Source: Bacteroidales bacterium
GTDB lineage: Bacteria; Bacteroidota; Bacteroidia; Bacteroidales; UBA932
Length of the DNA: 64,000 bases
Assembly: GCA_017452265.1 (NCBI GenBank)
Contig: JAFTMS010000012.1
Location: 62,001 to 126,000, forward strand
Reading direction: 5' to 3'
Below the pieces are notes generated by a model. That model made no database searches. It saw only the letters and a list, made by a program, of their open reading frames with translations, and was not told where the DNA came from. The translations under genes and the position numbers were made by a program. Shown piece after piece: positions 1 through 22,309 of the stretch (positions are counted from its first letter, which is position 1; each line of letters starts with the position of its first letter).

Positions 1-321
1 TTCAACGATCCTCCGGTGGCTGACTTCAATGATCCGGTGCGGGTAAAGCTTGTGGAGCTGGAACATACATGCCGCCAGCAGCAGGTGAACGAGAAGTGTT
101 TCGACACCCTCGACCAGGTGCCGACCCATGCCATGACCTTGACGGTGCCTTCGCTGATGGCTGCGGACTGGATGTTCTGCATAGTACCTTTCGTCAACAA
201 GGCGGAAGCGGTACGCAGGACTCTCTGTGATGAGGTCTCGACAGCATGTCCGGCCACAATTCTCCGCACAAGGGAGAACGTGCGCCTGTATCTGAACGAC
301 GACAGTGCTTCGCTGCTTTGA
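1..321 (+). CDS. nagB: Glucosamine-6-phosphate deaminase, C-terminal part (5' end outside window)
   Basis: The reading frame is open from base 1 and stops at TGA 319-321, so only about the last 106 residues are present. The FNDPP stretch at the very start, the segment VPTHAMTLTVPSL and the C-terminal cysteine/arginine-rich end match the GlcN6P deaminase/isomerase family, which converts glucosamine-6-P to fructose-6-P and ammonia in the cytosol. That is the last committed step of amino-sugar and sialic-acid catabolism, after NanA, ManNAc epimerisation, phosphorylation and NagA. The next gene starts 4 bases after the stop, so it probably heads or belongs to the operon running to about 6.75 kb. 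Family assignment is by recalled similarity only; the catalytic N-terminal half is not visible. Confidence 0.85.
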   Translation, partial: FNDPPVADFNDPVRVKLVELEHTCRQQQVNEKCFDTLDQVPTHAMTLTVPSLMAADWMFCIVPFVNKAEAVRRTLCDEVSTACPATILRTRENVRLYLNDDSASLL

Positions 322-325
322 TGAC

Positions 326-1948: not shown

Positions 1949-3624
1949 TTGAAATGAAACGTATATTCTTATTTTCTGCCTTATGCTGCATGATGCTTGC
2001 CGTATCGTGCTCTGACGACACTGCTTCCGGAACCGATCCGGTGACACCTCCGCAGACCGGAGGAGGCAGCAAGGCTGTCGGAACGGTGACATGTGAAGGT
2101 TCTCCTGTGGCAGGAGCGCTGGTCTCCGATGGAATAAATGTGGTCGAGACCGACGGTGACGGACATTATGAACTTTCCACTGAGAAGGAAAGCGGAATGG
2201 TGTTCATCACGCCGCCGGCGGGTTATGTGCCTATGTCTGCAGACGGAGTGAAGCCTGATTTCTATCAGTATCTGAAGGCTGATTTCTCCACTGAAACGCA
2301 CGACTTCAAGCTTCGCAGGGAAGACCAAAGCGCGTATACGGTACTTTTTGTGACGGACCTGCACCTTACGAATGCCGATTTCAAGCCGGATATCCAGGTG
2401 TTCCGCGATAACGTCATGCCGAATGTCAAGGCGCTGGCTGCCGCTGCGGAAGCGGACGGCCCGGTATATACGATGAATCTCGGGGATCTTTCCCACGAAA
2501 GATGGTGGTACAAGTACAGCTACACCGTCCGTAATGCCTATAATACCCTTGTGGAAAACGGCTGGCCGACGATGATGTGGAGCATTCCGGGCAATCACGA
2601 CAATGATTCGGCCGTGCGTACGGAGGACACGGATTGGGATGCGGGCCATCTCTACCGTGCAGTTCTCGGGCCGGAGTATTATTCCGTGAACATAGGCAAC
2701 GACCATTGGGTGATGATGGACAACATCATATATGAGAATACGGACGGGAAGAATCTGGCTGTCGGTGCAGTAGGAACGCTTGATTATTCGGTCGGCTTTA
2801 CTGACAGGCAGATGGAATGGCTCGCAAATGACCTTGCCTTCGTGCCTTCCGACAAGAGGATCATCCTTTGTACCCATGCATCGTGCATTTCCGACACTTC
2901 CACCGGATATACCCATCCGCAGACCCAGATGAACCAGCTGGCAAGGCTGCTCCAGCGCTTCAGCAATGTCATCGCCTACAGCGGGCACAACCACAGGATG
3001 CATTTCTTCAAGAGCAAGGCCTACACCCAGTTCGACCAAGGCATAAAGCTGCCTGCTACTTCCGGAGACATGTGGGAGTCCTTACCGAACCATCTCATCG
3101 GCTGCGACGGTGAGGACGGAGGCATATATGTCCTCAAGACCGCAGGAAGCACAAGCTCTGATTCGTATCATACTCATCTTTTCGGAGAGAAGTATATGAG
3201 GGTCTACGACATGAACACGGTCGCTCAGTTCTACAATACCGATGAAGACGTCAAGGAACAGATGGAGACATATCCTTTGCGTCTGGATTATGGCGACGGA
3301 AGCTATGCAGACCAGATTCTTGTAAATTACTGGATGCACAAGCCGGGAGAGAGCGTGCAGGTGTGGGAGGATGGAGTGCAGCTGACGGTGAAGTCCGTTT
3401 CCTATGAGGATCCTCTCTTCAACATCAGCTACCACATCAGGACATTCAGGAAGGAACTCCCTATAACTCCGGGCCAGAAAACCGTAACGGCCGACCATAT
3501 GTTTGTGGCTCAGGCTTCTACGGCCGACAAGCCTGTCACCGTCAGGGTCGTGGGAGCGGACGGAAACATAATACGTGAAGTTACGGTTGAAAGGCCGAAG
3601 GCGTTTGATCATAATATGGAATGA
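1945..3624 (+). CDS. Calcineurin-like metallophosphoesterase lipoprotein, paralogue of the preceding gene
   Basis: Up to 559 residues. The ATG at 1945 overlaps the previous stop; an alternative ATG at 1954 gives MKRIFLF. Either way a lipobox (LAVSC) predicts a lipid anchor. The domain order equals the upstream gene: transthyretin-like N-terminal region, catalytic core with DLH, GDLSHERWW, PGNHDND, CTH and GHNH, and a C-terminal domain ending RPKAFDHNME, nearly the same as the RPKAFGHKMK tail of its neighbour. It probably arose by tandem duplication followed by a change from soluble periplasmic to lipidated form. All metal ligands are present, so activity is expected. The substrate is unknown; position in a sialic-acid/amino-sugar operon suggests a glycan- or nucleotide-sugar-linked phosphate. 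Confidence 0.85.
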   Translation: MIEMKRIFLFSALCCMMLAVSCSDDTASGTDPVTPPQTGGGSKAVGTVTCEGSPVAGALVSDGINVVETDGDGHYELSTEKESGMVFITPPAGYVPMSADGVKPDFYQYLKADFSTETHDFKLRREDQSAYTVLFVTDLHLTNADFKPDIQVFRDNVMPNVKALAAAAEADGPVYTMNLGDLSHERWWYKYSYTVRNAYNTLVENGWPTMMWSIPGNHDNDSAVRTEDTDWDAGHLYRAVLGPEYYSVNIGNDHWVMMDNIIYENTDGKNLAVGAVGTLDYSVGFTDRQMEWLANDLAFVPSDKRIILCTHASCISDTSTGYTHPQTQMNQLARLLQRFSNVIAYSGHNHRMHFFKSKAYTQFDQGIKLPATSGDMWESLPNHLIGCDGEDGGIYVLKTAGSTSSDSYHTHLFGEKYMRVYDMNTVAQFYNTDEDVKEQMETYPLRLDYGDGSYADQILVNYWMHKPGESVQVWEDGVQLTVKSVSYEDPLFNISYHIRTFRKELPITPGQKTVTADHMFVAQASTADKPVTVRVVGADGNIIREVTVERPKAFDHNME

Positions 3625-7783: not shown

Positions 7784-10351
7784 TCATTTTCTGTATCCGA
7801 ACACGAAGCTTGAAAGCCATCCGATAAGGCAGCAGGAAACCAAGCCTATGAATCCGTATAGCGTTGTGGATATATTTGTATAGGAATTAGCTGCAAGCAA
7901 TACAAGGATGCTTCCGACGAATCCCGTGATTGCCGCTCTGAGCCCGATTCTCTTTGAAAATATTCCCATGGTGAACAGGCCTCCCACGCCGCTTGTCAGC
8001 AGACCGAGGAAGAAGTTGAACTGATCCCAGAGCGAGGCGATATCGAATGTGGCCATGGCGACGGCCATGATTACGCCGAGCCCTCCGACCACCACTCCGG
8101 AAGTCTTCGCGAACCTCATCTTGTGTCCTTCGTCCGCCCCTTTTCTGTAACGGGCATAGAAGTCCTCTGTCATGACCGTGGATGCGGAATTGATGTTGGA
8201 TGACAACGTGGACATGGCGGCGGCAAATATTGCAGCAATCAGCAGTCCTGCGATGCCCTTAGGCAGCTGACACATTATATAATGAGGGAAAATGGAATCC
8301 GTGTTTGACATTCCTACGTTCAGCATCTCAGGATGGCTTTTGAAGAACACGAACAGGGCAGTTCCGATTCCGAAGAATATGATGGCGACAGGAATGCTCA
8401 GAATACCGTTGAGCCACAGGCTCTTTTTTGTTCCGGCCGTATCCTTCACCGTGATGTATCTCTGTATGACGGACTGGTCACTGGTATAGGTCAGGAGCTG
8501 ATTGGCGAATCCTCCTACAATCGCCACCCAGAACACCGGCTGGCTCAAGTCAAAGGTGAAGTCGAGAATCTGGAACTTCTCCTCCTCAATAGCTACCTGC
8601 ATCACCGTTCCGAGGCCTCCGTCCACTCCTGAAATGATCCAGATCAGGGAAAGAAGCGCGCCTCCGAGCAGAATTATTCCTTGTATCACGTCTCCCCAGA
8701 CTACAGCCTCGATGCCGCCCATTGTGCAATATATAATGGTAACGACTCCCATCATGACTATACATAAGTAGATGTTGAGTCCGGTGACTGCATTAAGTGC
8801 AAGGGAAGGGAGGAACAGAACGATCGCCACTCTTGCGAACATGAATACGCAGAAGAAGGTCGAGGCCAGCATTCTTGCCGCAGAGCCGAATCTGTCCTCC
8901 AGATACTGATATGCGGAAGCTACATTGAGCTTGCGGAAGAAAGGCAGATAGAAGCCGATGACCACCGGGACGGTCATGATGATTGTCATATTGAATATGA
9001 ACATGTTCCAGTTGGCTGCATAGGCCTTTGCCGGAATCGAAAGGAAGGTGATTGCGCTTAACGCTGTCGCAAAGATGCTTATGCCGGCGGCCCACCAAGG
9101 AATCTTGCCGCCACCTTTGAAAAACTGGTCTGTGCTCTTCTCCTTTCTCGAAAAGTAGAAACCGATACCGAGCATTATCACCAGATAGAGGATAACTACA
9201 GCGTAGTTCAGCCATCCGAACGACACATCATCATTGATGGACACTTCAAGGATATCAGGTGTCCTCTGTCCCGGTCTTTCCTCACCGGATACAATCACAA
9301 CCTTGTCCCCGAGTTTCACGGCTGATGTCACGACCGGGAGTCCCTTCTCATACTGATTCATGGTAATCCATGTATCAGTGATGGGGTGGTATGCGTATAT
9401 GTTGCGGTCAAAACCGGTATGCGATGTGAATGCTTCCGTCAGTTCTTCCTGCAGTTTCTGACGCTCTGCTACATCTGCACATACGCTTATCCTTTGCTCC
9501 AGAGATGCCCTACGCAGGAACTCCTTGCTGTTGTCTCCGCCGAAGATCAGAATATGCCCGGAACCGTATCCGATTGCGCTGGCCGCACCAAGGACAGCCG
9601 GGTTCCCGTCTGAGATTATCTGCGCCTTACGGTTCCATTTGTCGCGGGCTGGGAGATATTCCATTACATGTGTGCAAAAATGGTATCCGCCGTTTTCCCT
9701 GCCTCTTCCACCTATGAGATAGATGGCGTCCTCCTTGCCGTTGTGCTGGGCGGCGAGGGTGGCGACTTCGCTGATGGCCTTGCCCGGCATTCCTGCCAGT
9801 CTGATCCATGAGCCGGCTGAAGGAGAATACCGATATAAGACGTTTTCAGAACCGTCTGTGCCATGTACATATGCTTCTCCTTTACTGTATATTGCAGCCA
9901 CTGGTATGAAGCCCTGAGGGAGTGTGGCGACGGAATCGGCCTTTACTCCGTTACCGTTGAGGCTGATCCGATATACGGCCTGAACGGTATTCTTCCCGTC
10001 TGTTCCTCCAAAGCACCAGATGTGCTTTCCGTCATATGCCGTGCAGCCGTTACCGGCGGCGACTGGCAGTTTTTCGTCAAGCAGTCTGGCTTCATATCCG
10101 TTCTGACCGGCTTTTATGATATATATTCTGTCAGACCACTTTTTTACTCCGCCTTCCCACGGGAATCCTTCAGGAAAGTCAGAGCCTCCGGCTACAATGA
10201 TTGCATCTGAGATTACGCCGATGTAGGCGCCGGCTGTGCCGTATCCGTCCGGAACGGGAAGTTCTCCGACTTTTCTGATGTCACATTCGGATGCTCCGCT
10301 ATAGAAAGGGAGCAGGGCAAGTAACAGAAGCCAAATCAATTTTTGTCTCAT
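7784..10351 (-). CDS. NanM-like kelch epimerase (cyclically permuted mutarotase) fused to sodium:solute symporter
   Basis: About 855 residues from the ATG at 10351, chosen for its signal peptide (MRQKLIWLLLLALLPFYSG). Residues about 25-370 form a kelch-type beta-propeller with repeated GG motifs (VAGGSDFP, CFGGTDG, LIGGRGR, IFGGDNS), like N-acetylneuraminate epimerase NanM. From about 385 a multi-spanning SSS-family transporter follows, beginning LNYAVVILYLVIMLGIGF and the conserved SRKEKSTDQFFKGGGKIPWW. The layout puts the propeller in the periplasm and the sodium-driven carrier in the inner membrane, so the anomer produced can pass straight to import. It is the only evident inner-membrane sialic-acid importer here. 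It is divergent from the nan operon. Such fusions occur in Bacteroidetes. Confidence 0.85.
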   Translation of the reverse strand: MRQKLIWLLLLALLPFYSGASECDIRKVGELPVPDGYGTAGAYIGVISDAIIVAGGSDFPEGFPWEGGVKKWSDRIYIIKAGQNGYEARLLDEKLPVAAGNGCTAYDGKHIWCFGGTDGKNTVQAVYRISLNGNGVKADSVATLPQGFIPVAAIYSKGEAYVHGTDGSENVLYRYSPSAGSWIRLAGMPGKAISEVATLAAQHNGKEDAIYLIGGRGRENGGYHFCTHVMEYLPARDKWNRKAQIISDGNPAVLGAASAIGYGSGHILIFGGDNSKEFLRRASLEQRISVCADVAERQKLQEELTEAFTSHTGFDRNIYAYHPITDTWITMNQYEKGLPVVTSAVKLGDKVVIVSGEERPGQRTPDILEVSINDDVSFGWLNYAVVILYLVIMLGIGFYFSRKEKSTDQFFKGGGKIPWWAAGISIFATALSAITFLSIPAKAYAANWNMFIFNMTIIMTVPVVIGFYLPFFRKLNVASAYQYLEDRFGSAARMLASTFFCVFMFARVAIVLFLPSLALNAVTGLNIYLCIVMMGVVTIIYCTMGGIEAVVWGDVIQGIILLGGALLSLIWIISGVDGGLGTVMQVAIEEEKFQILDFTFDLSQPVFWVAIVGGFANQLLTYTSDQSVIQRYITVKDTAGTKKSLWLNGILSIPVAIIFFGIGTALFVFFKSHPEMLNVGMSNTDSIFPHYIMCQLPKGIAGLLIAAIFAAAMSTLSSNINSASTVMTEDFYARYRKGADEGHKMRFAKTSGVVVGGLGVIMAVAMATFDIASLWDQFNFFLGLLTSGVGGLFTMGIFSKRIGLRAAITGFVGSILVLLAANSYTNISTTLYGFIGLVSCCLIGWLSSFVFGYRK

Positions 10352-10377
10352 TGTATCAGTTTTTAGTGTTTTGGTGA

Positions 10378-10385
10378 CAAATATA
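10378..10385 (-). promoter_or_regulatory. Probable -7 box for the epimerase-symporter gene
   Basis: On the minus strand the sequence reads TATATTTG, an exact TAnnTTTG match, 27 bases before the ATG. No TTTG is found at the usual 19-21 base distance; the nearest is only 11 bases away (10397-10400). Confidence 0.45.
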
Positions 10386-10488
10386 GTCAAAGCAGTCAAA
10401 TATCTGTTTGATGCCGTAAAAATAATATATAAAATCCGATTTGTATCAAGAAATTGTTAAAAATCGTCGTAAAATTTGTTAATATGTA

Positions 10489-10549: not shown

Positions 10550-13198
10550 ATGAGAAAGATGACCGGATTTTTCATCAGCGCAGCCTTGCTTTCAGGCCTC
10601 ATTTCCTGCATTCAGGAGCCGTTCAACATAACGGGAGAGGTGTCTTGCGAGGGCCAGCCTGTCAAGGGTGCCGTCATTTCGGACGGCGTCGAAGTTGTGA
10701 CTACGGATAGGAATGGGCGGTATTTTATGAATTCACAGAAGGAAAACGGATATGTGTTCATATCGATTCCGTCAGGATATGATGTAGACGCAGACGGTCT
10801 GATTCCACGACATTTCGTGAGGCTTGGGGAAAATCCGGTCGATACGGCTGATTTCAGGCTCATCCGTTCCGACAACGACAGGCATACGATGGTGGTGTCT
10901 ACAGATATACATCTGACCGGGGATGCCGTAGACAAGGATCTGCCGCAGTTTCACAGCATCTATCTGCCAGGTATCACGGAGTTCATAAAGAATCTGGACG
11001 GGAAGGTGTACTCTGCGTGTCTGGGAGACATGAGCACGGACGGCAAATGGTACAAGAACGGTTTCGCTCTGCCGGAATATCTTGAGCAGATGGCTGTCTC
11101 ATACCCGACACCTATATATCATGTCATGGGAAACCACGACAACGAAAGGCGAGGTAAAGGGACTGTAGAGGAATGGGACGAAATCGGAGAAAGCGCATAT
11201 AAGAAGGTAGTCGGACCGAATTACTATTCTCTGAACATCGGTAAGGTGCACTATGTGTTCCTTGACAATATCGTCACATACGGGAAAAACCCTGAAGGAT
11301 ATTCGGCGGAGGATTTTGACTGGTTCCCGAAATACGGATTCCGCTACATCGTCGACTCCATCCAGATTGAATGGTTGAAGAAGGACCTTTCCTATGTGAA
11401 GTCGGACACTCCTGTGGTGGTAAGCATGCATGTGCCTCTGTATTCCACCAAAGGTCTGGAAGATGGCAAGGTGATATATAAGGAAGGAGCCTCAAAGTTC
11501 CAAAAGCCGGAAGTCGTGACTGACATTCTTGACCGCTTTGAAGACGTTCATCTTCTTGCCGGCCATCTCCATCATAACAGCACGATGAACATTAAGGAAA
11601 ATCTTGTGGCGCATAATATTGTGTCGGCATCTGCGGTGTCGTGGAAACTGAACGATGTCGACAGCACTCTGATCTGTGGAGACGGTTCGCCGGCAGGATA
11701 TCTGGTGTTGAGAGCCGACGGGAAGGATATAAGCTGGCAGTACAAGGCAAACACGCTTCCGATAGAAAAGAGCCAGTTCCGTCTGTATGACCTCAATGAG
11801 GTAGCTCCTGAATATGGGGGACTTCCGGGAGGGAATGAGCTGCTGCTGAATGTCTTCAACTGGGACGACAAATGGACGGTGAAGATAAAGGAAGACGGCA
11901 GGGAACTGGAGCTGGAACAGGTTTGCGGAAAGGATCCGATGTATTCGGAAATACGTGCGACCACCAGGATGCTTCCGACAAGGCCGACCGCCTTTCTTCC
12001 GGACAGTACGATACATCTGTTCCGCGCCAGGACACAGTCGCCTGTTTCAATGATTACGGTTGAGGTGACGGACAGATTCGGAAATGTGTACAGGGAGGAC
12101 TATCGTCAGCCGGCTCCTGTCGTCTCGGATGTGATATTCAGGAAAGGTGATTACGGGTATGACACTTTCAGGATACCGGCCCTGCTGAAGACCGGAAGCG
12201 GAAGTGTCCTTGCCTTTGCCGAAGCACGAAAGTACAGTAAGAGCGATACGGGGGATATTGATCTCGTAGTCCGTCGTTCGGATGATGGCGGAAGGTCATG
12301 GAGTGACATGCAGGTGGTCTGGGATGATGCGGAAAATACATGTGGCAATCCTGCACCTGTTCTGGATGAAGAATCGGGAAAGATAATCCTTGTGACGACC
12401 TGGAACAAGGGAACCGATCCTGAAGCCGATATTCATGCAAAGACCTCAGAAGATACCAGAAGAGTGTTCGTGATGACTTCCGATGATGACGGAAGGACAT
12501 GGAGTGCGCCAAGGGAAATTACAGCCCAGGCAAAGAAACCGGAGTGGACCTGGTACGCTACAGGCCCATGTCACGGACTGCAGATTCGAAGCGGAGAGCA
12601 TAAGGGAAGGATTGTCATTCCGTGCAATCATGGAGTGTTCAAGGACGGAAAGGCAGCTGGGACGCTGTCTCATGTCATTTATTCAGATGATCTGGGCGAA
12701 AACTGGAAGATAGGTGGTATCGCTTCAACGGGAAATGAATCCACCATAGCTGAACTCGAAGACGGAACCTTGATGCTGAACATGCGTGTATGGAAAAACA
12801 AGTCTGTTCAGAGGACCGATTTCGACCGTGATGTGGCGTGGAGCCGGGATGGAGGAGAATCATTCTGCAGGGAGTCGACTGCTTCGGGGCTTGCGGAACC
12901 ACGCTGCAATGCCAGCATAACAAACAGGTATAAGGACGGAAAGCCGACATCAGTCCTTCTGTTCTCGAATCCTGACCATGTGAAGAAGAGGGTGAACATG
13001 ACGCTCAAGCAAAGTAACGACAACGGGCAGACGTGGAGTCCGGTATACAGGTTCGATGGCGCAAAGGCCGCATATTCCGACCTCGCCGTATTTGATGACG
13101 GAGATGTGGGAATACTGTACGAGTGCGGAATGAAGTCGCCTTATGAAAAGATTGTGTTCACAAGATTGCCTTCCGAAATCATTGAATTCAACAATTAA
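10550..13198 (+). CDS. Lipoprotein fusing a calcineurin-like phosphoesterase to a GH33-type exo-sialidase
   Basis: 882 residues with a lipobox (GLISC, Cys 20), so probably outer-membrane anchored. Residues about 26-520 repeat the three-domain phosphoesterase of the two genes at the window start: DIHLTG, GDMSTDG, MGNHDNE, a later His motif MHVP, GHLHHN, then the C-terminal domain. From about 522 a complete sialidase follows: FRIP with catalytic Arg541, an acidic loop SDTGDIDLV, Asp boxes (SDDGGRSWS, SDDDGRTWS, SRDGGESF, SNDNGQTWS), NESTIAEL with the helper Glu, and AAYSDLAV with the likely Tyr nucleophile. Both halves look active. It should release terminal sialic acid while acting on a nearby phosphate group of unknown nature. 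First gene of the nan operon. Confidence 0.88.
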   Translation: MRKMTGFFISAALLSGLISCIQEPFNITGEVSCEGQPVKGAVISDGVEVVTTDRNGRYFMNSQKENGYVFISIPSGYDVDADGLIPRHFVRLGENPVDTADFRLIRSDNDRHTMVVSTDIHLTGDAVDKDLPQFHSIYLPGITEFIKNLDGKVYSACLGDMSTDGKWYKNGFALPEYLEQMAVSYPTPIYHVMGNHDNERRGKGTVEEWDEIGESAYKKVVGPNYYSLNIGKVHYVFLDNIVTYGKNPEGYSAEDFDWFPKYGFRYIVDSIQIEWLKKDLSYVKSDTPVVVSMHVPLYSTKGLEDGKVIYKEGASKFQKPEVVTDILDRFEDVHLLAGHLHHNSTMNIKENLVAHNIVSASAVSWKLNDVDSTLICGDGSPAGYLVLRADGKDISWQYKANTLPIEKSQFRLYDLNEVAPEYGGLPGGNELLLNVFNWDDKWTVKIKEDGRELELEQVCGKDPMYSEIRATTRMLPTRPTAFLPDSTIHLFRARTQSPVSMITVEVTDRFGNVYREDYRQPAPVVSDVIFRKGDYGYDTFRIPALLKTGSGSVLAFAEARKYSKSDTGDIDLVVRRSDDGGRSWSDMQVVWDDAENTCGNPAPVLDEESGKIILVTTWNKGTDPEADIHAKTSEDTRRVFVMTSDDDGRTWSAPREITAQAKKPEWTWYATGPCHGLQIRSGEHKGRIVIPCNHGVFKDGKAAGTLSHVIYSDDLGENWKIGGIASTGNESTIAELEDGTLMLNMRVWKNKSVQRTDFDRDVAWSRDGGESFCRESTASGLAEPRCNASITNRYKDGKPTSVLLFSNPDHVKKRVNMTLKQSNDNGQTWSPVYRFDGAKAAYSDLAVFDDGDVGILYECGMKSPYEKIVFTRLPSEIIEFNN

Positions 13199-13217: not shown

Positions 13218-14123
13218 ATGAAACTCATTAATGGACTTATTGCTGCAGTCTTCACACCATTCGATGCGGATGGGGAGATTGATCTGACCGTAATCGGACC
13301 GTATGCTGAAAAGCTGATTGCCGACGGAGCCGACGGAGTGTTCGTATGCGGAACAACAGGAGAATGCCCTTCGATGACCGTCAAGGAACGAAAGACGGTG
13401 CTGGAAGAGTGGATCAAGGCAGTGCACGGCAGAATGCTGGTCATCGCTCATGTCGGAGGCACCTGTCAAAAGGATTGCGCCGAACTTGCCGCGCATGCCC
13501 AAGAGGTCGGTGCAGATGCCATAGGCTCTGTCCCGCCTTACTATTTCAAGCCTCAGAACGTGGATTGTCTGGTGGAATTCTTCCGTCCTGTGGCTGCGGC
13601 CGCTCCAAAGCTGCCGTTCTACTATTACCACATCCCTTCTGTAACAGGAGTAAGTTTCGACATGACAGCCTTTCTTGAAAAGGGTGCGGCTGCCATCCCG
13701 ACTCTGGCAGGAATCAAGTTCACCGGAACAGACTTCATGGCCATGTCCAAATGTGTCTGCTATGAGGACGGCCGCTTCAACATCCTTAACGGATTCGATG
13801 AGATGCTTCTTTCCGGACTTGTATCCGGGGCTCAAGGGGGAGTCGGCAGCACTTACAATTATGCTTTTCCGGTCTACCGCAACATCATGAATGCCTTTGC
13901 GGCAGGCGATATAGAGACAGCAAGATTCTGGCAGCGCCGTTCGATAGATGTTGTCGACGTCATCGTCAGACATGGCGGCGGAGTGAGAGGCGGCAAGGCA
14001 ATGATGAAGGCGATAGGAATCGATTGCGGAAACTGCCGCAGTCCTTTTGCTCCTTTCACGGCAGCCGAAATGGATGCTGTGGATTCGGAACTGAAGGCAA
14101 TTGATTTTGATTCAATAAAGTAA
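13218..14123 (+). CDS. nanA: N-acetylneuraminate lyase
   Basis: 301 residues, the family's usual size. The ATG at 13218 gives MKLINGLIAAVFTPF, the classic start of this TIM-barrel class I aldolase; upstream ATGs lie in the sialidase frame region. Motifs match: GTTGE at 45-49 for carboxylate binding, Tyr137 in YYHIPSVTG, and the Schiff-base Lys167 in AGIKFTG. Positions agree closely with E. coli NanA (Tyr137, Lys165). The enzyme splits Neu5Ac into ManNAc and pyruvate in the cytosol. It sits 19 bases after the fusion sialidase and 18 before susC in one operon, which separates it from the dihydrodipicolinate synthases of the same superfamily. Confidence 0.93.
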   Translation: MKLINGLIAAVFTPFDADGEIDLTVIGPYAEKLIADGADGVFVCGTTGECPSMTVKERKTVLEEWIKAVHGRMLVIAHVGGTCQKDCAELAAHAQEVGADAIGSVPPYYFKPQNVDCLVEFFRPVAAAAPKLPFYYYHIPSVTGVSFDMTAFLEKGAAAIPTLAGIKFTGTDFMAMSKCVCYEDGRFNILNGFDEMLLSGLVSGAQGGVGSTYNYAFPVYRNIMNAFAAGDIETARFWQRRSIDVVDVIVRHGGGVRGGKAMMKAIGIDCGNCRSPFAPFTAAEMDAVDSELKAIDFDSIK

Positions 14124-14141: not shown

Positions 14142-17100
14142 ATGAAAAAGTTTTATTCAATCGCAACAACTCTGTTGAGCTGTCTGATGCTGATGATTTC
14201 AGTATCTCTTGGAGCTCAGAACAACCTGTTGAAAGGAAAGGTTGTCGAACAGAATGATGAACCGGTGGTCGGTGCTGCGGTATTTGTCGAAGGAACGGAC
14301 ATTGCTGCCATTACCGATATAGACGGAAACTATCAGCTGTCGTTTCCGGGCGAGAATGCTACCGTGACGGTGTCGTGTCTCGGCTTTGCAACACAGCATG
14401 TCAAGGTGTCTGCAAAGCAAGGCGTGCTGAACGTCACTCTTTATACCGATGCCACAGAGCTTGACGAGATTGTGGTGGTCGGATACGGAGAGCAGACGAG
14501 AAAGACCATTACGACAGCCGTCTCAAGGCTTGGCGGAGAAAGTGTGCAGGATGTTCCTATCACGACTCTCGGTGAAGGATTGAAGGGAAAGATTTCCGGA
14601 CTTCGCGTGACTCAGAACAACAACACTCCGGGCGGTGGCTTCACCTATCGTATCCGAGGCGGTTCTTCCATAAACGGCAACAACTCGCCGCTCATCCTCG
14701 TCGATGGTGTGGAAAGGGATTTCTCTACAATCAACCCTAACGACATATCTTCAATAGAGGTGCTCAAGGATGCGGCTTCTTCTGCAATCTACGGAGCAAG
14801 AGCATCGAACGGTATCATCCTCGTGACGACAAAGAAGGGTACATACAACAAGGATGTCAGGATTACCTTCGAGGCAAATGTGGCATATCAGAATACGGAA
14901 ACGGAAATCGACCTTATGGGGGCTGAGGACTATATCCGTATCACGCGACTCGCTGTAGCTGAGTATCTTGATGTTCCATCACGTGCGGCCGCTGCAAGGT
15001 CATACCTTGATGGAGCCACGTCGGCAGGTACCGGAAACAAACCTGGCGGAATGTTCTCGACAAGATACTATAATCCTGAAACGGATGTACTTCCTGAAGG
15101 ATATCAGCTCATGACAGACCCGCTTGACGAAACAAAGCAGATCATGTTCAAGGAAACGGACTGGCAGAAGCTGCTGTATCGCCCGGCATTGTGGCAGAAC
15201 TATTATGTAGGAGTTGATGGCGGCGGCAATCGGATACGTTACAAGGCCAGCCTCAACTATAACACAGACCAGGGTGTTGCCATATCTACAGGGTATGACA
15301 GGCTGAACTTCAAGATAAACATGGATGGCAAGATCACCGACAATCTCACAGCTACGTTCGGAACCGACTTCGCAAGGACAAACACGGAAGCCTACGCGAA
15401 CCAGCGCAACACCATCGCACGTGCTCTTGCAAATGCTCCGACAATGAATGCATACTATGATGACGGCAGTCCGGTGGAAGGCTTCAACGCCACATCGCAG
15501 ACTCCGCTCTTCTATAACGAGTACTATGACAGGACCAACCAGAAGGACTATCTCTCGATTCACGGAGGACTCAAATGGGACATCATCAAGGGGCTCACAG
15601 CAAACGTACAGGCTTCGTTCTTCAAGAACACGTCAAAGACAACCCAGTTCATAAAAGAGAATGTGTATGACGCGACAAGAAAGTCTTCGTGGGCTCAGAA
15701 CACGACAGAAAGACGCAAGCTGGACGCTTATCTTCAGTATAAGAACACATTCGGTAAGCACAGCCTTGCGGTAATGGGCGGTTATGCCTACCAGTATCGC
15801 AATTACGAGACTGTCAAGCTCGCCGGCTCCGGAGCCACATCGGACAAGATCACGACCATCAACGGTTCATCCGTATTCGAACCGGGCGACATGAGCTCAT
15901 CTCTCCAGATGGAGTCTCAGGTGGGCTTCTTCGGACGTGTCAATTATGATTATGCCGGCAGATATCTGCTTACCGCTACATTCCGCGAAGACGCTTCTTC
16001 GAAATTCGCTCCGGACAATAGATGGGGATTCTTCCCTGGCGTATCGGCCGGATGGATCCTTACCGAAGAGAACTGGCTCAATGATGTCAAATGGCTGAAT
16101 CTCCTCAAGCTTCGTGCAAGCTACGGCTCGACCGGTAACAGCGATGGCGTCGGCATCTATGATGCATACGGTTCGTTCGCAGCAAACTACATCTACAACG
16201 GAAATGCCGGCATCAAGCCGAGCGACATGCCTAACGAAAGCCTGAGATGGGAGACTACTACTCAGCTCGACCTCGGATTGGATCTTTCGTTGTTCAACAA
16301 CAGAATCTATCTCACGGCTGACTGGTACAATAAGATTACAAATGACCTGCTGTATGAACAGAAGCTTCCTAACACGACGGGATTCTCTACGATCTGGACC
16401 AACATCGGAAAGGTGCGCTTCTATGGATATGACATCGAACTCACGACTCATAACATCCAGAGGAAGAACTTCTCATGGGATTCCAAACTTACATTCAGCT
16501 ATACATGGAATGAGGTGCTTGAACTTCCGGACAACGGTATCGACAAGGGACGTACCGGCGGTATAGCTCTTGGAGACGGAACGTATTTCGGCGGTATTGC
16601 GGAAGGTGAGCCTTTGTACAGGTTCTATGGATATTGGGCGACAGGAATCCTCGAAACGGAAGAACAGGCAGCCAACGCACATTATGATGCGCTTTCACGT
16701 CTTCCTGTCAAGGGACAGAAAAGAGTAGGAGACTATGAGTGGGCGGACAGAAACGGCGACGGAAACATCACGACTGCCGACCAATTCTGCCTCGGAGTCA
16801 CCGTTCCTCCATATACGGGAGGTTTCAGCAATGACTTCAGATACAGGAACTTCACTCTCTCGATATACATGGACTGGGCGATAGGCCACTCTATCTACGA
16901 TGATGCCTACAACCGTCATTTCTACTCTACATATACGATGAACCACTCTCTGGCGGAAGAAGTGAAGAACTGCTGGAAGCAGCCAGGTGACGACACTAAA
17001 CTGGCAAAGTTCACTGCCAATGACTCTGCCTGGGGAAATGACAACTACAACCGCAAGGCCAATCAGATATTCACCTATAAGGGAGACTATCTGTGCCTCA

Positions 17101-17318
17101 GGGAGGTTTCCCTCCAATATGCCCTTTCTGAAAGGGCTCTCAGGAACACTCCTTTGAAGGGATTGACCGTAACCCTTTCCGGTAACAACCTGCATTACTT
17201 CACGGCAGTGGAAGGTATATCTCCGGAAGTCGGTACGAGCTCTACGTTCGACGGTGACAATTATAACAACTACCCTCCGATCAGAAGGCTGTCACTTGGA
17301 GTTAAATTAACTTTCTAA
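14142..17318 (+). CDS. SusC-family TonB-dependent outer-membrane transporter (NanO-like)
   Basis: 1058 residues. Signal peptide to about residue 25, then a carboxypeptidase-regulatory-like domain (about 28-110, LLKGKVVEQNDEPVVGAAVF), a TonB-box-like stretch DEIVVVGYGEQ, a plug domain (IRGGSSINGNNSPLILVDG, EVLKDAASSAIYGARASNG) and a 22-strand barrel ending in Phe (LGVKLTF). In Bacteroidetes such proteins import bound oligosaccharides with TonB energy. Here the flanking nanA, susD and two sialidases point to sialic acid or sialylated glycans, as for NanO of B. fragilis and Tannerella. The specificity is inferred from the locus only. Confidence 0.92.
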   Translation: MKKFYSIATTLLSCLMLMISVSLGAQNNLLKGKVVEQNDEPVVGAAVFVEGTDIAAITDIDGNYQLSFPGENATVTVSCLGFATQHVKVSAKQGVLNVTLYTDATELDEIVVVGYGEQTRKTITTAVSRLGGESVQDVPITTLGEGLKGKISGLRVTQNNNTPGGGFTYRIRGGSSINGNNSPLILVDGVERDFSTINPNDISSIEVLKDAASSAIYGARASNGIILVTTKKGTYNKDVRITFEANVAYQNTETEIDLMGAEDYIRITRLAVAEYLDVPSRAAAARSYLDGATSAGTGNKPGGMFSTRYYNPETDVLPEGYQLMTDPLDETKQIMFKETDWQKLLYRPALWQNYYVGVDGGGNRIRYKASLNYNTDQGVAISTGYDRLNFKINMDGKITDNLTATFGTDFARTNTEAYANQRNTIARALANAPTMNAYYDDGSPVEGFNATSQTPLFYNEYYDRTNQKDYLSIHGGLKWDIIKGLTANVQASFFKNTSKTTQFIKENVYDATRKSSWAQNTTERRKLDAYLQYKNTFGKHSLAVMGGYAYQYRNYETVKLAGSGATSDKITTINGSSVFEPGDMSSSLQMESQVGFFGRVNYDYAGRYLLTATFREDASSKFAPDNRWGFFPGVSAGWILTEENWLNDVKWLNLLKLRASYGSTGNSDGVGIYDAYGSFAANYIYNGNAGIKPSDMPNESLRWETTTQLDLGLDLSLFNNRIYLTADWYNKITNDLLYEQKLPNTTGFSTIWTNIGKVRFYGYDIELTTHNIQRKNFSWDSKLTFSYTWNEVLELPDNGIDKGRTGGIALGDGTYFGGIAEGEPLYRFYGYWATGILETEEQAANAHYDALSRLPVKGQKRVGDYEWADRNGDGNITTADQFCLGVTVPPYTGGFSNDFRYRNFTLSIYMDWAIGHSIYDDAYNRHFYSTYTMNHSLAEEVKNCWKQPGDDTKLAKFTANDSAWGNDNYNRKANQIFTYKGDYLCLREVSLQYALSERALRNTPLKGLTVTLSGNNLHYFTAVEGISPEVGTSSTFDGDNYNNYPPIRRLSLGVKLTF

Positions 17319-17330: not shown

Positions 17331-18794
17331 ATGAAAAGGTTTATAATAAATACGCTTCTGGGCCTTTTGGCTGTCACTTCTGTCCTATCTTGCGTGAAGG
17401 ATCTGGACATAGAGCAGAAGAGCAAGATAACTACATCGAACATGTGGAAATCTGAGTCGGATGCTACCGGTGCAATGTATGGCATGTTCCATCAGTTCCG
17501 TGCGGCATTGAATACAAACATAATCTATTGGGGCGATTTCCGTTCCGGCACATTTGCCGATGGACTTGGGGCAGGAACTGCCGTAAAGATGTTCAACAAC
17601 AATCTCGATTCCACAGAGGGCAAAGGAACAAACTGGGGCAGTCTTTATACGACGATCAATGATGCCAACCTTATCCTGAAGCATTGTCCGGGCATCTCAT
17701 ATAAGAGTGAAGACGCAAAGAATCTTGTCCTGGCGCAGGCATACTTCGTACGTGCATACTGCTATTATATGATTGCAAGGGTATGGGGTGATGCTCCTCT
17801 CCTTACAACCGGTTTCGAATCCGACAAGGACGACCTCCAGCCTGTAAGGACGGATGTGGACGAGATATATGCCCTTGTGGCTTCCGATATAGAGAAGGCT
17901 CTTGAACTTATGCCGGAAACAGCATCGGATCCGACGATCGGTACACGTGACGCCATCCTTATGCTGAAGGCGGATCTGTATCTGTGGAAGTATCAGGTGC
18001 GTAACGGAACCGAAGAAGACCTTGCAACTGCGGAAGCCGCTGTAGATGAGGTTCTGGCCGGAACCCATGGCCTTCTGGACTCATATGCATCTGTGTTCGA
18101 TATAAACAACAAGAACAACAAGGAAATAATCCTTACCCTGCATTTTGAGAAGGGAGAATACGAGGGAGGATATGCAGACAGCTGGCTCATACCGAGCTCA
18201 AGATGGGTTTCTGCTGATGAACATATAGAAAAGGACGTAAAGATAATGACTTCCGATGACCAGAGATACAATTTCTCTGAATCCATGATTGAGCTTCTGC
18301 AGAGCGATTATCGCGACACCAGACTTCCGGTATGTTACGGAAACTGGACGGATGAGGTGGAAGGAGTAACATATACATGGATAAACAAGTTTGCCGGTCT
18401 TTGGGAAGACAACGTGAGATATTTCATCTCTGACGAGCCGCTTTACAGATATGCGGAGGCAGTATTGTTCAAGGCTGAGATTGAGAATGAGCAGAGGAAT
18501 ACATCTTCGGCCCTCACCTATCTCAACATGATTGCAAAGCGCGCATATGGTGTGGACGGATGTTATGCTACGACAGATTACGAGAAATTCAAGTCCCTGC
18601 TCTGCGATGAGTATGTGAAGGAGTTTGCGGCAGAAGGAAAGACATGGTGGGTATATAACAGATTAGGCTTCGTCTTTACAAAGGTAGAGACTCTTCGTGG
18701 CCGTCAGAACGAGACCAACATACTTCTGTGGCCTATTTCAAACTCATGTATGAATGAGAATCCGAACATCAGGCAGACTGTAGGATATTATTAG
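17331..18794 (+). CDS. SusD/RagB-family surface glycan-binding lipoprotein (NanU-like)
   Basis: 487 residues with lipobox VLSC (Cys 21). N-terminal helices contain SusD-type features (NMWKSESDATGAMYGMFHQFR, then AQAYFVRAYCYYMIARVWGDAPLL with the conserved RA..Y pattern of TPR-like helices), and the C-terminus has the usual WPISNSCMNENPNI...YY ending. It starts 12 bases after susC. SusD proteins form the lid of the SusC barrel and hand over the ligand; the locus suggests sialic acid. Confidence 0.92.
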   Translation: MKRFIINTLLGLLAVTSVLSCVKDLDIEQKSKITTSNMWKSESDATGAMYGMFHQFRAALNTNIIYWGDFRSGTFADGLGAGTAVKMFNNNLDSTEGKGTNWGSLYTTINDANLILKHCPGISYKSEDAKNLVLAQAYFVRAYCYYMIARVWGDAPLLTTGFESDKDDLQPVRTDVDEIYALVASDIEKALELMPETASDPTIGTRDAILMLKADLYLWKYQVRNGTEEDLATAEAAVDEVLAGTHGLLDSYASVFDINNKNNKEIILTLHFEKGEYEGGYADSWLIPSSRWVSADEHIEKDVKIMTSDDQRYNFSESMIELLQSDYRDTRLPVCYGNWTDEVEGVTYTWINKFAGLWEDNVRYFISDEPLYRYAEAVLFKAEIENEQRNTSSALTYLNMIAKRAYGVDGCYATTDYEKFKSLLCDEYVKEFAAEGKTWWVYNRLGFVFTKVETLRGRQNETNILLWPISNSCMNENPNIRQTVGYY

Positions 18795-18806: not shown

Positions 18807-20069
18807 ATGAAAGTATTCAGAATCATTATCCTGGCTGCATTTCTGCTTTCGTCGGCAGCATGTCAGAAGGACAACGGTTTCTCTGATCCGACCAAGCCGG
18901 GAGGAAAAGACAATACTGAAACGCCGGGAGCCGAAGAAACTGATGCCGTCGTTTTGTGGAAGAACAACGACAAGGTGGCCGGCAAGACATATATCAGCTT
19001 CAGAATTCCGACCCTTCTCAGGACTCCGAACAAGCTGTTCGCCTTCATAGAGGCAAGAACAGTGAATACGGACAGGGGAGATATCGATATTGTCTACAGA
19101 GTTTCGGAAGACAATGGCAAGACATGGGGCGAGTCAGTCCTTATGTTTTCGGACGGAGACCACACTGTGGGCAATGCATGTGCCGTCTACACTTCGTCCG
19201 GAAGAATCTGCATGCTTTTCAACTGGCATGTCATGAGGACGCCTGCAACCGGAACATACCCTTCCGAGTTAGGAGTTACTGATGCTCAGAGACAGGCGCA
19301 CTCTCGCAGAGTATTCTATACATATTCCGATGATGAAGGCGTCACCTGGTCCAAGCCTCTTGACATTACGGATACCGTGATGGAAGACAACTGGACATGG
19401 AATGCAGTCGGCCCTGTTCATCCGATTCAGCTCAAGACAGGGGAATACAAAGGCCGTATCATATTCCCGTGTGACCTCAAGACCGCATCAGGTGGAGAAA
19501 GGGATAATCTTTATTCGTATGTGATTTATTCCGATGACAACGGACAGACGTTCAAGAAGTCATCGATCATTCCTTACGGAAACGAGAGCACCGTTGTAGA
19601 ACTTTCAGACGGACGCCTCCATCTTGACATGAGGAATTCGAACAGTTCGTATTACGAGGACGGAATTGCCTGCAGGGCATACAGCATCAGTTCTGACGGA
19701 GGCGAGACATGGGGCAAATACATATATGATGAGTCGCGCCCAGAGCCGACGCCTGTCAGCGGCGGTACAAAAGGATGTCAGGGTGTCATCGAAAATTATA
19801 ACACTGATGGCAAGCCTTCGAAAAACATCCTGTTCATGAATCCTGCCGATGCTGTCAAACGTCAGAATCTGACGCTCCGCTGGAGTAATGACGATGGTTT
19901 CAACTGGAGGAAATCCGAGGTCATATGTTCGACGCTTGCCGGTTACTCCGATATGGTAGTCCTTGAAGACGGCAGTCTTGCGATGCTGTACGAGAACGGC
20001 ATATCAGCGTATGATGAAAAAATTTCGTTCAAGGTGAAACCTGCTGATGAGATCACTCCATATTTTTAG
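18807..20069 (+). CDS. Exo-alpha-sialidase, GH33-type lipoprotein
   Basis: 420 residues with lipobox SSAAC (Cys 19). The six-bladed propeller signature is complete: FRIP with catalytic Arg66, the acidic-loop segment NTDRGDIDIV, Asp boxes SEDNGKTWG, SDDEGVTWS, SDDNGQTF, SSDGGETWG and SNDDGFNW, the helper Glu in NESTVVEL and the likely nucleophile Tyr in LAGYSDMVV. It releases terminal sialic acid from surface glycans outside the cell or in the periplasm. It lacks the phosphoesterase module carried by its operon partner; otherwise the propeller motifs are parallel, so the two probably share ancestry. It follows susD by 12 bases. Confidence 0.92.
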   Translation: MKVFRIIILAAFLLSSAACQKDNGFSDPTKPGGKDNTETPGAEETDAVVLWKNNDKVAGKTYISFRIPTLLRTPNKLFAFIEARTVNTDRGDIDIVYRVSEDNGKTWGESVLMFSDGDHTVGNACAVYTSSGRICMLFNWHVMRTPATGTYPSELGVTDAQRQAHSRRVFYTYSDDEGVTWSKPLDITDTVMEDNWTWNAVGPVHPIQLKTGEYKGRIIFPCDLKTASGGERDNLYSYVIYSDDNGQTFKKSSIIPYGNESTVVELSDGRLHLDMRNSNSSYYEDGIACRAYSISSDGGETWGKYIYDESRPEPTPVSGGTKGCQGVIENYNTDGKPSKNILFMNPADAVKRQNLTLRWSNDDGFNWRKSEVICSTLAGYSDMVVLEDGSLAMLYENGISAYDEKISFKVKPADEITPYF

Positions 20070-20110: not shown

Positions 20111-22309
20111 ATGAAATCAAGAATATCAATGTTATTGAGCCTTCTGATGCTCGTCGGATGTTCGTTGGATTACAAAGACGAAATCAATCCGGCCGTGAGC
20201 GATGAGGATGCAACTGGAAAACTGACCGTCAATGTGTGCGTGAGCGGAACATTTGCGTCCGATGATGCTTTGACGGAGGCGGAACTGTCCGTGTCGGAAT
20301 ATGACCTTCTGGTCTTTGACGATGCCACAGGGCAGCTTCAGTATAAAGAGACAGGCGTTGTCCCTTCGAAGAAGGAAGCAGTCTCCGGTACTTCAGACTA
20401 TCTTTTGGATATAAAGGAAATAGAACTTCCGAATACAGGAAAGAAGAAGGTGTTCGTGATAGCGAACAGAAACAGTTCTCTCGAAATACCGGAACTGGTC
20501 ACATGCCTTGAGGATGAGGGTGGCTGCACTCTCTTGAATGAGTTCAGAGACGGTGTCGTGCAGACTCTGGCTGCCGCTCCGTCATCACCTCTTGTCATGG
20601 TTGGCGAAACATCCGTCTCTACATCAAACGGAACAGCCCTTTCTGTGACTCTGGCAAGGACAGTCGCAAAGATTTCCGTGATAAACAAGGATGCCTCGGC
20701 AATCGTTCTGAACAGCATTCTTGTCAAGGGCGCAGCTTCGTCTGTGGCTCCCCTTGCGGAATCTGGCGCTCCTGTAAAGTCTGACGGTATTGAATACTCG
20801 CCGATAAAGCCTTCTTCTTCGGATCCATGTGCAGTGTTCTATGTGCTTCCGACCGTCGCGAATCAGATGACGGTAACAGCAGAAGGCACGGTCAACGGAG
20901 AAGCGTTTGTCGCTGAGACCGTTGTAAACACCGATGTGTATGCCGATTATGGCTGCCGACTCGAATACTCTGTTTCCGGAGCTAAGGTAAAGAGTGCGTT
21001 CACTCCTGCCTTTGATGTCGAGATTATCCCGGCCATTTCGGTCTCAGGCCACTGGCTGAGCGGTACGTCAGAGATCACTCTTCCATATATGGCAGAGCCT
21101 GTTTATGGATTTACGTTTGATGTAAATCTTGAGGAAGGTTCTCCTGCCGCTATCGTATTCCAGAACGAAGAATCAGACTGGTATGACGTGGAAATGCTGG
21201 AGAGCGGCAAGGTGAGAGTCCGTGCCCTCAAGGAAAATGCCGGCTCCGAAAGGGAGTCATCATTCACTATCGCTTCGGGAGGAAACACCTTCAAGATGAA
21301 TGTCATACAGCAGGGTATAGCGGACATCACGACGGTCAGCTTCTGCGGAATCGAATGGATGGACCGCAACGTGGGCGCTACCCTCCGTGCTAATATGGCA
21401 GGAAGTTCCGACATAAGGTCATACGGATATCTCTTCCAGTGGGGACGTAATGTTCCGTTCCCTGTGGAAGGTACGGTAGAGACCGTTGCGGGCCAGATGA
21501 CTCCTGCCGAGGCCATGGCATCGGATAAGTTCATTGTCTATAATGAAGGCACGCAGGACTGGAATTCACAGGGAGTGGAAGGCACTCACGAGGCTTATTG
21601 GGATGAGGTTACGTCAAACCCATGTCCGTCGGGATACCGCCTGCCTACATATTCTGAACTGGAAACGATACTTCCTTATCGTCTGAATGCACTGATATAT
21701 GCGTCCGGACGTCAGGGCAGGAAAGTGACCAAGGCCAATGGGGAGACATATTATTATGTCGGTGTCGGAACTGGTTCAATCAAGGAATATCAGCCTACTG
21801 GCGCGATACGAGGCATAATGAATCAGGGAACCGAAGACGCATATCATCTCAGATGGCAGCTCAACAACGAAGGCGGCATCATGCAGTCAGATGCGAATAA
21901 CGGTGATGTCAATTATATCGCAGGCGGAAAGAATATCGTCAGAATCAGTTATATTGACGGAGATTCATCATCGGATTTTCCAAAGGGAGAACACATGGCG
22001 CTGGCAAACGAGTTCTGGAACACCCACACTCCTGAACAGGAAATCTACTTCCCTTGCCCGGGACGCCGAGATGCCACTGGAGCTATTGTCGAGAGCGGAG
22101 AGGCCGGCTTCTACTGGTCACGTTCGATGTATAAGGGAAACAAGACGACAGAGGCATACGCTTCCGGTCTGTTCTATTTCCGTCCTGCAGGAAAGTTCAT
22201 GCTTATGGTGGCTCCTGCCATCGGTACTGCGGATGTTTATACCGCTACTGAGGCCTACGGCTATCGCAATCAGGCCTTCCCGATCCGATGCGTCAAGGAT
22301 AAGCAATAA
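20111..22309 (+). CDS. Large lipoprotein with fimbrillin-like N-terminal part, BACON-like domain and FISUMP-like C-terminus
   Basis: 732 residues with lipobox LVGC. The N-terminal half (about 25-295) has the Mfa/fimbrillin-like pattern (TGKLTVNVCVSG, YDLLVFDDATGQL, KVFVIANRNSS, ARTVAKISV). A BACON-like beta domain follows, ending FKMNVIQQGIAD. The last 300 residues (IEWMDRNVGA, YGYLFQWGR, NPCPSGYRLPTYSELE, GFYWSRS, FPIRCVK) resemble the Fibrobacter major paralogous/DUF1566 fold found at the ends of many surface lipoproteins. It is the last gene of the nan operon before a strong terminator, so the likely job is a surface sialoglycan-binding or adhesin protein. No direct family with known function is recognised. 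Confidence 0.75.
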   Translation: MKSRISMLLSLLMLVGCSLDYKDEINPAVSDEDATGKLTVNVCVSGTFASDDALTEAELSVSEYDLLVFDDATGQLQYKETGVVPSKKEAVSGTSDYLLDIKEIELPNTGKKKVFVIANRNSSLEIPELVTCLEDEGGCTLLNEFRDGVVQTLAAAPSSPLVMVGETSVSTSNGTALSVTLARTVAKISVINKDASAIVLNSILVKGAASSVAPLAESGAPVKSDGIEYSPIKPSSSDPCAVFYVLPTVANQMTVTAEGTVNGEAFVAETVVNTDVYADYGCRLEYSVSGAKVKSAFTPAFDVEIIPAISVSGHWLSGTSEITLPYMAEPVYGFTFDVNLEEGSPAAIVFQNEESDWYDVEMLESGKVRVRALKENAGSERESSFTIASGGNTFKMNVIQQGIADITTVSFCGIEWMDRNVGATLRANMAGSSDIRSYGYLFQWGRNVPFPVEGTVETVAGQMTPAEAMASDKFIVYNEGTQDWNSQGVEGTHEAYWDEVTSNPCPSGYRLPTYSELETILPYRLNALIYASGRQGRKVTKANGETYYYVGVGTGSIKEYQPTGAIRGIMNQGTEDAYHLRWQLNNEGGIMQSDANNGDVNYIAGGKNIVRISYIDGDSSSDFPKGEHMALANEFWNTHTPEQEIYFPCPGRRDATGAIVESGEAGFYWSRSMYKGNKTTEAYASGLFYFRPAGKFMLMVAPAIGTADVYTATEAYGYRNQAFPIRCVKDKQ

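What the first reader, a model, noticed from the sequence alone, without database searches (positions are those of the whole stretch)
10550..13198. Single lipoprotein joins a phosphoesterase and a sialidase
The N-terminal 520 residues are a complete calcineurin-like phosphoesterase of the same three-domain kind as the two genes at 326-3624, and the C-terminal 360 residues are a complete GH33 propeller. Both keep their catalytic residues. A physical link implies that one glycan end carries both sialic acid and a phosphate (a phosphodiester, or a nucleotide such as CMP-sialate). I know of no characterised enzyme of this make-up.
Basis: partly seen in the sequence, partly recalled or inferred. 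Interest (0 to 1): 0.72.

Follow-up and report, generated by a model that had tools for sequence, protein, structure and literature searches.

The report
Phosphoesterase fused to a sialidase
A Bacteroidales bacterium makes one protein that joins a phosphate-ester-cutting enzyme to a sialic-acid-cutting enzyme inside a gene cluster for using sialic acid, which suggests that some of the sialic-acid-bearing sugars it eats also carry phosphate.

Summary
ORF 10550-13198 (+) is one uninterrupted 882-codon gene: MetallophosN-Metallophos-MetallophosC (residues 29-514) joined almost without linker to a GH33-type propeller (about 529-882). Its metal-site and sialidase catalytic residues are intact. It is not an assembly join: a second genome of the genus carries the same fusion (76% identity, residues 1-881) in the same gene cluster. 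The fusion is rare: 2 of 400 genus genomes, 1 of 299 family, 1 of 393 order; sets overlap.

The gene lies in a sialate utilisation locus (NanM-symporter, NanA-like lyase, SusC/D, second GH33, GntR). The fused phosphoesterase falls in a 7-row clade; 5 of the 6 other rows have GH33 in the fetched locus, four of them with the phosphoesterase unfused, against 0 of 46 other phosphoesterases (2 of 48 counting two window genes). Related phosphoesterases lie beside glpT instead (11 of 46).

Best reading: a bifunctional anchored enzyme that strips a phospho-ester group and sialic acid from the same imported glycan. The phosphoesterase's substrate is not shown.

The parts
10550..13198 (+). fused phosphoesterase-sialidase gene, 882 aa
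   Evidence: second copy of the fusion in L146
10550..10609 (+). signal peptide with lipobox LISC, Cys at residue 20
   Evidence: read from the sequence; motif recalled, no predictor run
10634..10861 (+). MetallophosN domain PF16371, residues 29-104
10892..11575 (+). Metallophos catalytic domain PF00149, residues 115-342; metal-site columns D119 H121 D160 N195 H196 H294 H339 H341
   Evidence: roles recalled
11612..12091 (+). MetallophosC domain PF16370, residues 355-514
12092..12136 (+). join: the last residues seen in several unfused phosphoesterases and the signal peptide of unfused sialidases are missing; almost no linker
   Evidence: alignments; N-termini
12125..13195 (+). GH33-type propeller (BNR_2 PF13088 at residues 553-855)
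7784..10399 (-). kelch mutarotase (NanM-like) joined to a sodium:solute symporter
13218..14123 (+). NanA-like lyase (DHDPS family; best NCBIfam model is N-acetylneuraminate lyase, below its cut-off)
14142..17318 (+). SusC-like TonB-dependent transporter
17331..18794 (+). SusD-like lipoprotein
18807..20069 (+). second GH33-type sialidase, likely lipoprotein
   Evidence: lipobox by eye
20111..22309 (+). fimbrillin-like protein of the locus
22789..23517 (-). GntR/FCD regulator of the locus
305..1948 (+). related phosphoesterase of another branch (neighbour, probably not part of the unit)
1945..3624 (+). related phosphoesterase of another branch (neighbour)

Best explanation
The gene makes a lipid-anchored two-enzyme protein of a sialic acid utilisation locus. 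The second sialidase of the locus (18807-20069) and SusC/SusD gather sialylated glycan at the cell surface; the fused protein, probably facing the periplasm, removes a phosphate-ester group (monoester or diester) from the glycan with its phosphoesterase half and releases sialic acid with its GH33 half. The NanM-like domain turns over the anomer, the symporter imports the free sialic acid, and the NanA-like lyase cleaves it. Shown: one gene, intact catalytic columns, conservation in a second species, and repeated co-location of this phosphoesterase clade with sialidase genes. Inferred: both halves are active, they work on the same glycan, and the side of the membrane.
For: Single frame and domains. 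Catalytic columns. Second fused copy in G798 with NanM-symporter, GntR, NanA-like, SusC, SusD, GH33 and fimbrillin-like genes beside it, 70-85% identical to the window's. The same kind of gene set with phosphoesterase and sialidase as separate genes in G002 (L068), G856 (L147) and G900 (L149, 13 bases apart), and a different order in G287 (L067). Clade support 99 (SH-aLRT, quick tree) and GH33 in the locus of 5 of 6 clade members with context against 0 of 46 others. The second sialidase's subclade was found in 4 of 400 genus genomes, each with this phosphoesterase in the locus. Amino-acid change much rarer than silent change in both halves (pN 0.11-0.22 against pS 0.71-0.77). [quoted passage not shown] a SASA-esterase/GH33 fusion also lies in G212 (L069).
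Against: No phosphorylated sialoglycan nutrient was identified; no assay and no structure (prediction switched off). One clade member (L148) has no sialidase in its fetched 16 kb, only a BNR protein that by eye lacks the FRIP arginine, plus a sulfatase. Related phosphoesterases fuse to quite different partners (GDPD, FAD oxidoreductase, GDSL esterase), so the family joins readily to other enzymes. Of 19 sialidase-bearing stretches of this genus fetched besides the window, 15 show no phosphoesterase of this family (some are short contigs).
Confidence: 0.55

Rival explanations
1. The phosphoesterase half serves a separate need: it frees phosphate, glycerol-3-phosphate or another alcohol from phosphodiesters that arrive with the same food (cell debris, bacterial polymers), and the join only ensures co-export and equal dosage.
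For: Related phosphoesterases lie in loci with a glpT-like transporter (11 of 46 rows with context outside the clade, in nine loci), six of these loci also with a glpD-like gene. Two of these transporters were scanned: glpT is the best NCBIfam model, but below its cut-off (500.7 and 460.4 bits against 632.55). A family member in the same genome is fused to a GDPD domain (L003).
Against: No glpT-like gene in the fetched locus of any of the 6 clade members with context. The clade is repeatedly tied to sialidase genes.
Confidence: 0.22
2. The phosphoesterase splits CMP-sialate (or a CMP-like sialyl phosphodiester), giving a second route to free sialic acid next to the sialidase.
For: Both halves would yield the same product, which the rest of the locus takes up. 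An S1/P1 nuclease lies in the neighbouring gene group at 5972-6754. The superfamily includes nucleotide phosphodiesterases (recalled).
Against: No nucleotide-handling gene among the eight genes of the locus itself at 7784-23517; extracellular CMP-sialate is scarce (recalled); the contexts of related clades do not point to CMP-sugars.
Confidence: 0.1
3. The phosphoesterase half no longer catalyses and holds or positions glycans for the sialidase, as N-terminal carbohydrate-binding domains of other sialidases do.
For: It stands where another relative has a BNR_assoc_N domain (L079).
Against: The eight metal-site and catalytic residues are present here; seven of the eight columns are kept in 68 or 69 of 69 rows and column 121 is H or Q. 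The catalytic domain is the best conserved part of the phosphoesterase half between the two fused copies.
Confidence: 0.06
4. Assembly join or frameshift artefact.
For: The genome is a draft (45 contigs, 84.49% complete).
Against: The same join, without a gap in the alignment, in a second genome, itself a draft.
Confidence: 0.01

Closest known systems
SiaBb1, O-acetylesterase/sialidase fusion of Bifidobacterium bifidum (PMC10017367, passages)
   Same: One protein joins a GH33 sialidase to an enzyme that removes a substituent from the sialoglycan.
   Different: The partner there is an O-acetylesterase; here it is a calcineurin-like phosphoesterase, in a Sus-type locus.
Bacteroidetes sialic acid utilisation loci (NanL/NanE-II/RokA pathway in PMC10017367, passages; SusC/D-type uptake recalled)
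   Same: SusC/SusD, sialidase, NanM-like mutarotase, symporter, NanA-like lyase.
   Different: Has a phosphoesterase clade and a second sialidase; mutarotase joined to the symporter. NanE and RokA were not looked for.
Pfam MetallophosN-Metallophos-MetallophosC proteins (PF16371, PF00149, PF16370)
   Same: All three domains in order, metal-site residues present.
   Different: Carries an added C-terminal sialidase; belongs to a small clade tied to sialidase genes.
GH33 sialidases with solved structures (6myv, 4fj6, 4bbw)
   Same: Propeller; the residues taken as catalytic.
   Different: A phosphoesterase stands before the propeller; Pfam shows no carbohydrate-binding domain.
Purple acid phosphatases (6git, 1qfc)
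   Same: Remote similarity of part of the metallophosphoesterase core (2e-9).
   Different: Only about 160 profile positions align; the rest of the architecture differs.

Membership tests
GH33 sialidase | BNR-type propeller related to solved GH33 enzymes | tested here: met
GH33 sialidase | catalytic Arg triad, Asp, Glu, Tyr (roles recalled) | tested here: met
   R541, D566, E730, R746, R814 72/72; Y842 71/72
GH33 sialidase | releases sialic acid | not testable with these tools
   needs an assay
MetallophosN/Metallophos/MetallophosC phosphoesterase | all three Pfam domains above cut-off | tested here: met
MetallophosN/Metallophos/MetallophosC phosphoesterase | metal ligands and catalytic His (roles recalled) | tested here: met
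MetallophosN/Metallophos/MetallophosC phosphoesterase | phosphatase or phosphodiesterase activity | not testable with these tools
Bacteroidetes sialic acid utilisation locus | SusC/SusD, sialidase, NanA-like lyase, mutarotase and symporter together | tested here: met
Bacteroidetes sialic acid utilisation locus | lyase above NCBIfam's N-acetylneuraminate lyase cut-off | tested here: not met
   best model PRK04147, 190.5 bits against 281; named by rank and context
Substituent-removing enzyme/sialidase fusions (SiaBb1 kind) | partner removes a group from the sialoglycan | not testable with these tools
   analogy only; partner family differs
Glycerophosphodiester enzymes linked to glpT | glpT-like gene in the neighbourhood | tested here: not met
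   0 of 6 clade members with context; none among the eight genes of the window's locus

The most novel reading that the evidence does not exclude
The locus is a dedicated pathway for sialoglycans that carry a phosphodiester or phosphate (for instance phosphoglycerol-decorated or phosphorylated sialyl-oligosaccharides), a nutrient class for which my library searches found no described microbial degradation system; the phosphoesterase clade evolved from glycerophospho-linked relatives to open such glycans for the sialidase.
Probability: 0.3. Interest if true: 0.75.

Novelty: new variant of a known kind. Interest (0 to 1): 0.52.

Why it matters
Sialic acid release by gut microbes is known to be hindered by O-acetyl groups and opened by esterases (PMC10017367, passages). 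A phosphoesterase clade tied to sialidases, and fused to one in two species, suggests that phosphate is another substituent that some bacteria must remove, and gives a ready-made probe to find the glycan. It also offers a first substrate-suggesting context for the MetallophosN/MetallophosC family, for which a search by Pfam number found no paper.

Tried and rejected
Assembly artefact: rejected on the second fused genome. Plasmid search by DNA similarity: no match. Phage records: five records with weak matches to one half or the other, none covering 80% of the query. A scan of the contigs of 84,980 species with six peptide patterns gave 29 loci; BLAST of their ORFs at 1e-12 found the sialidase half only. 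A tool field giving the same open frame of 1177 aa for two matches in G287 looked like a third fusion; the translation shows separate genes with stops between, so it was dropped. The protein at L148:10012-11988 matches BNR_2 but lacks the sialidase arginine motif by eye, so it was not counted as a sialidase. Paper searches: searches listed none; one paper on iron, six, five, ten (listings only, except passages of PMC10017367 and of PMC11010951). Milk-derived phosphorylated sialyl-sugars were considered from memory; the passages of PMC11010951 found for sialyllactosamine and phosphate did not mention them, so this stays a recalled idea. Script labels used a reference for the fused sialidase half that I had cut out of frame; the second sialidase still caught the genes, and the counts were redone with a corrected reference.

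Limits of the counts: the genome sets overlap, were drawn from larger groups, and hold many fragmented drafts; match lists were cut. Searches used different E limits (1e-20, 1e-60, 1e-90). L067 was fetched because both halves had matched there, L068 likewise; L146-L149 came from the best matches; so 5 of 6 is not an unbiased sample. L067's phosphoesterase is cut by the contig end. The two upstream window phosphoesterases (305-3624), about 7-10 kb from the fused gene, were left out of the 46 and would make it 2 of 48. Sixteen other rows (these two included) and the window's fused row had no context. One search (second sialidase alone, E 1e-75) found 3 of 400, one of them (G797) another kind of sialidase at 44%; one search used a profile built from five loci already known to hold the phosphoesterase. 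Trees were quick ones with SH-aLRT only.

Full report
WHAT IS THERE. The window lies at G000:C7:62001-126000 of a 2.56 Mb draft genome (45 contigs, 84.49% complete). Names are withheld, but G149, of the same genus, holds a contig of 68,584 bases, the length of DCKG01000007.1 (Bacteroidales bacterium UBA1680), with a sialidase gene that gives identical BLAST figures, so the host is very likely a member of the Bacteroidales. ORF 10550-13198 (+) codes 882 aa without interruption: a signal peptide with LISC at residues 17-20, MetallophosN 29-104, Metallophos 115-342, MetallophosC 355-514, BNR_2 553-855. The best solved-structure matches of the C-terminal half are GH33 sialidases; the phosphoesterase half alone has only three PDB matches, at E 0.027, and with a profile only purple acid phosphatases, best 2e-9.

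THE JOIN. Some unfused relatives of the phosphoesterase end with a short tail after the last conserved stretch (L067, L068, L148), while L147 and L149 end earlier; unfused relatives of the sialidase mostly begin with a signal-like stretch of their own (by eye). In the fused gene the tail and a second signal are absent and the domains meet with almost no linker. The second fused gene, G798:C7:52045-54687, is 76% identical over residues 1-881. Aligned codon by codon, silent sites are near saturation (pS 0.71-0.77) while pN is 0.108 in the phosphoesterase core, 0.182 in its C-terminal part, 0.224 in the first 114 residues and 0.127 in the sialidase. Both halves are therefore under constraint.

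CATALYTIC COLUMNS. In 69 phosphoesterase rows the columns D119, D160, N195, H196, H294, H339 and H341 are filled by the same residue in 68 or 69; column 121 is H in 47 and Q in 21, and H here. In 72 sialidase rows R541, D566, E730, R746 and R814 are invariant and Y842 is kept in 71. The roles of these columns are recalled from the families.

THE LOCUS. Upstream on the other strand lies a kelch mutarotase joined to a sodium:solute symporter (7784-10399); downstream lie a NanA-like lyase, SusC, SusD, a second GH33-type lipoprotein, a fimbrillin-like protein and, on the other strand, a GntR/FCD regulator. I read this as a sialic acid utilisation locus; the lyase stays below the NCBIfam cut-off for N-acetylneuraminate lyase (190.5 against 281 bits). 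Before the window the contig carries SusC, an unlabelled gene in the SusD position, a BACON-domain protein, a NagP-like transporter (355.5 bits against a cut-off of 625) and NagA above its cut-off (280.8 against 225.65); then come the two phosphoesterases, a GDSL-type esterase and an S1/P1 nuclease at 305-6754.

HOW RARE, HOW LINKED. The fusion was found in 1 of 299 family genomes, 1 of 393 order genomes and 2 of 400 genus genomes; the sets overlap and each count includes G000. In a quick tree of 69 phosphoesterases the two fused ones are sisters (100) in a 7-row clade (SH-aLRT 99) with L147, L149, L067, L068 and L148. In four of these five the phosphoesterase is a separate gene in a locus with GH33: L068 and L147 (SusC, SusD, GH33, fimbrillin-like, phosphoesterase, GntR, NanM-symporter in this order), L149 (phosphoesterase 13 bases after a sialidase) and L067 (phosphoesterase, NanA-like, sialidase, sulfatase, second lyase, sialidase). 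Counting the second fused locus, 5 of 6 clade members with context have GH33; of the other phosphoesterases with context 0 of 46 do, and 11 of 46 have a glpT-like gene against 0 of 6. By hand, the chance that five sialidase contexts among 52 all fall in the six is 6/2,598,960, about 2e-6; this ignores relatedness and the partly selected sampling. If the window's fused row and its two upstream phosphoesterases are counted, it is 6 of 7 against 2 of 48. The second sialidase's subclade appears in 4 of 400 genus genomes, all four with this phosphoesterase in the locus (the next score drops from 661 to 406 bits, though the model was built from these loci and L068). Against the link: of 19 sialidase-bearing stretches of the genus fetched besides the window, 15 show no phosphoesterase of this family (L069-L074, L152-L160), so the phosphoesterase is an accessory of one kind of sialate locus. 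A sulfatase gene lies in L146 and L148 (Pfam) and, 59% identical to the former, in L067. In the sialidase tree the two fused propellers are sisters (100) inside a 20-row group (95) of sialidases, all but one from this genus's fetched stretches as far as the handles tell.

WHAT THE FAMILY DOES ELSEWHERE. Related phosphoesterases lie in nine fetched loci with a glpT-like gene, six of them also with a glpD-like and three with a glpR-like gene (labels by BLAST to L119's genes; L119's own best NCBIfam models are glpT and glycerol-3-phosphate dehydrogenase, both below cut-off). Others are fused to a GDPD domain in this same genome (L003), to an FAD oxidoreductase (L080), to that and a CE2/GDSL esterase (L081), or to a GDSL domain (L082). 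A nearer branch lies with aldolase-like and symporter-like genes (L150, L151) and, in L151, an L-fucose-isomerase-like gene. My inference is that the family cuts phosphate esters or diesters whose freed product is then imported, and that the clade studied here was recruited to sialylated food.

MECHANISM. The second sialidase has C-Q-K-D-N after its signal, resembling the surface export signal of Bacteroidetes lipoproteins (recalled), while the fused protein (C-I-Q-E-P) does not; several unfused relatives of its sialidase half seem to have signal peptides without a lipobox cysteine (L070, L071, L152, L155), though others (L072, L147) have one (by eye). I therefore place the fused enzyme more likely in the periplasm, acting on glycans brought in by SusC/SusD; this is weak evidence. 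The nearest functional precedent is the O-acetylesterase/sialidase fusion of B. bifidum, in which one half clears the way for the other (PMC10017367, passages). The substrate of the phosphoesterase half is open: phosphorylated or phosphoglycerol-bearing sialoglycans (preferred), unrelated phosphodiesters, or CMP-sialate.

VERDICT. Its interpretation is partly supported. This is a new variant of a known kind (a sialidase fused to a helper enzyme in a sialate locus) with an unusual and testable implication.

Noticed in passing
L003 / G000:C25:38500-51254 (L101): A MetallophosN/C phosphoesterase fused to a GDPD glycerophosphodiester phosphodiesterase domain in the same genome; a relative of that fusion, cut at the end of the stretch, lies in L114.
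   Followed up: partly
L100, L106, L114, L116, L117, L118, L119, L130, L137: Phosphoesterases of this family in loci with a glpT-like gene, seven of the nine with SusC, six with a glpD-like gene; looks like a glycerophosphodiester utilisation locus. Whether it is described was not searched.
   Followed up: partly
L080, L081/L136: Phosphoesterase fused to an FAD-dependent oxidoreductase (both) and, in L081/L136, to a CE2/GDSL esterase as well.
   Followed up: no
L069:3739-6834: Sialate O-acetylesterase (SASA) joined to a GH33-type sialidase in one 1031-aa protein.
   Followed up: no
L148:10012-11988: Sulfatase-modifying-factor-like (FGE) domain joined to a BNR propeller that by eye lacks the sialidase arginine motif, in a row with a sulfatase and a phosphoesterase.
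   Followed up: no
window 305-6754 and L103: Two phosphoesterases, a GxDLY/GDSL esterase and an S1/P1 nuclease follow SusC, a gene in the SusD position, a NagP-like transporter and NagA; perhaps a separate utilisation locus for phosphate-bearing or nucleic material.
   Followed up: partly
G000:C36:4144-5703 (L097, L102): A further phosphoesterase gene of this family is interrupted by a stop codon.
   Followed up: no
MT836730.1, MT835678.1, MT835944.1, MT835685.1: Unannotated 'Bacteriophage sp.' records from human faecal samples encode phosphoesterase-like or sialidase-like proteins at 27-33% identity, possibly bacterial DNA.
   Followed up: no
window 57277-63981: Two very large proteins (1169 and 1060 aa) that read like RHS/YD-repeat proteins; not scanned.
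   Followed up: no
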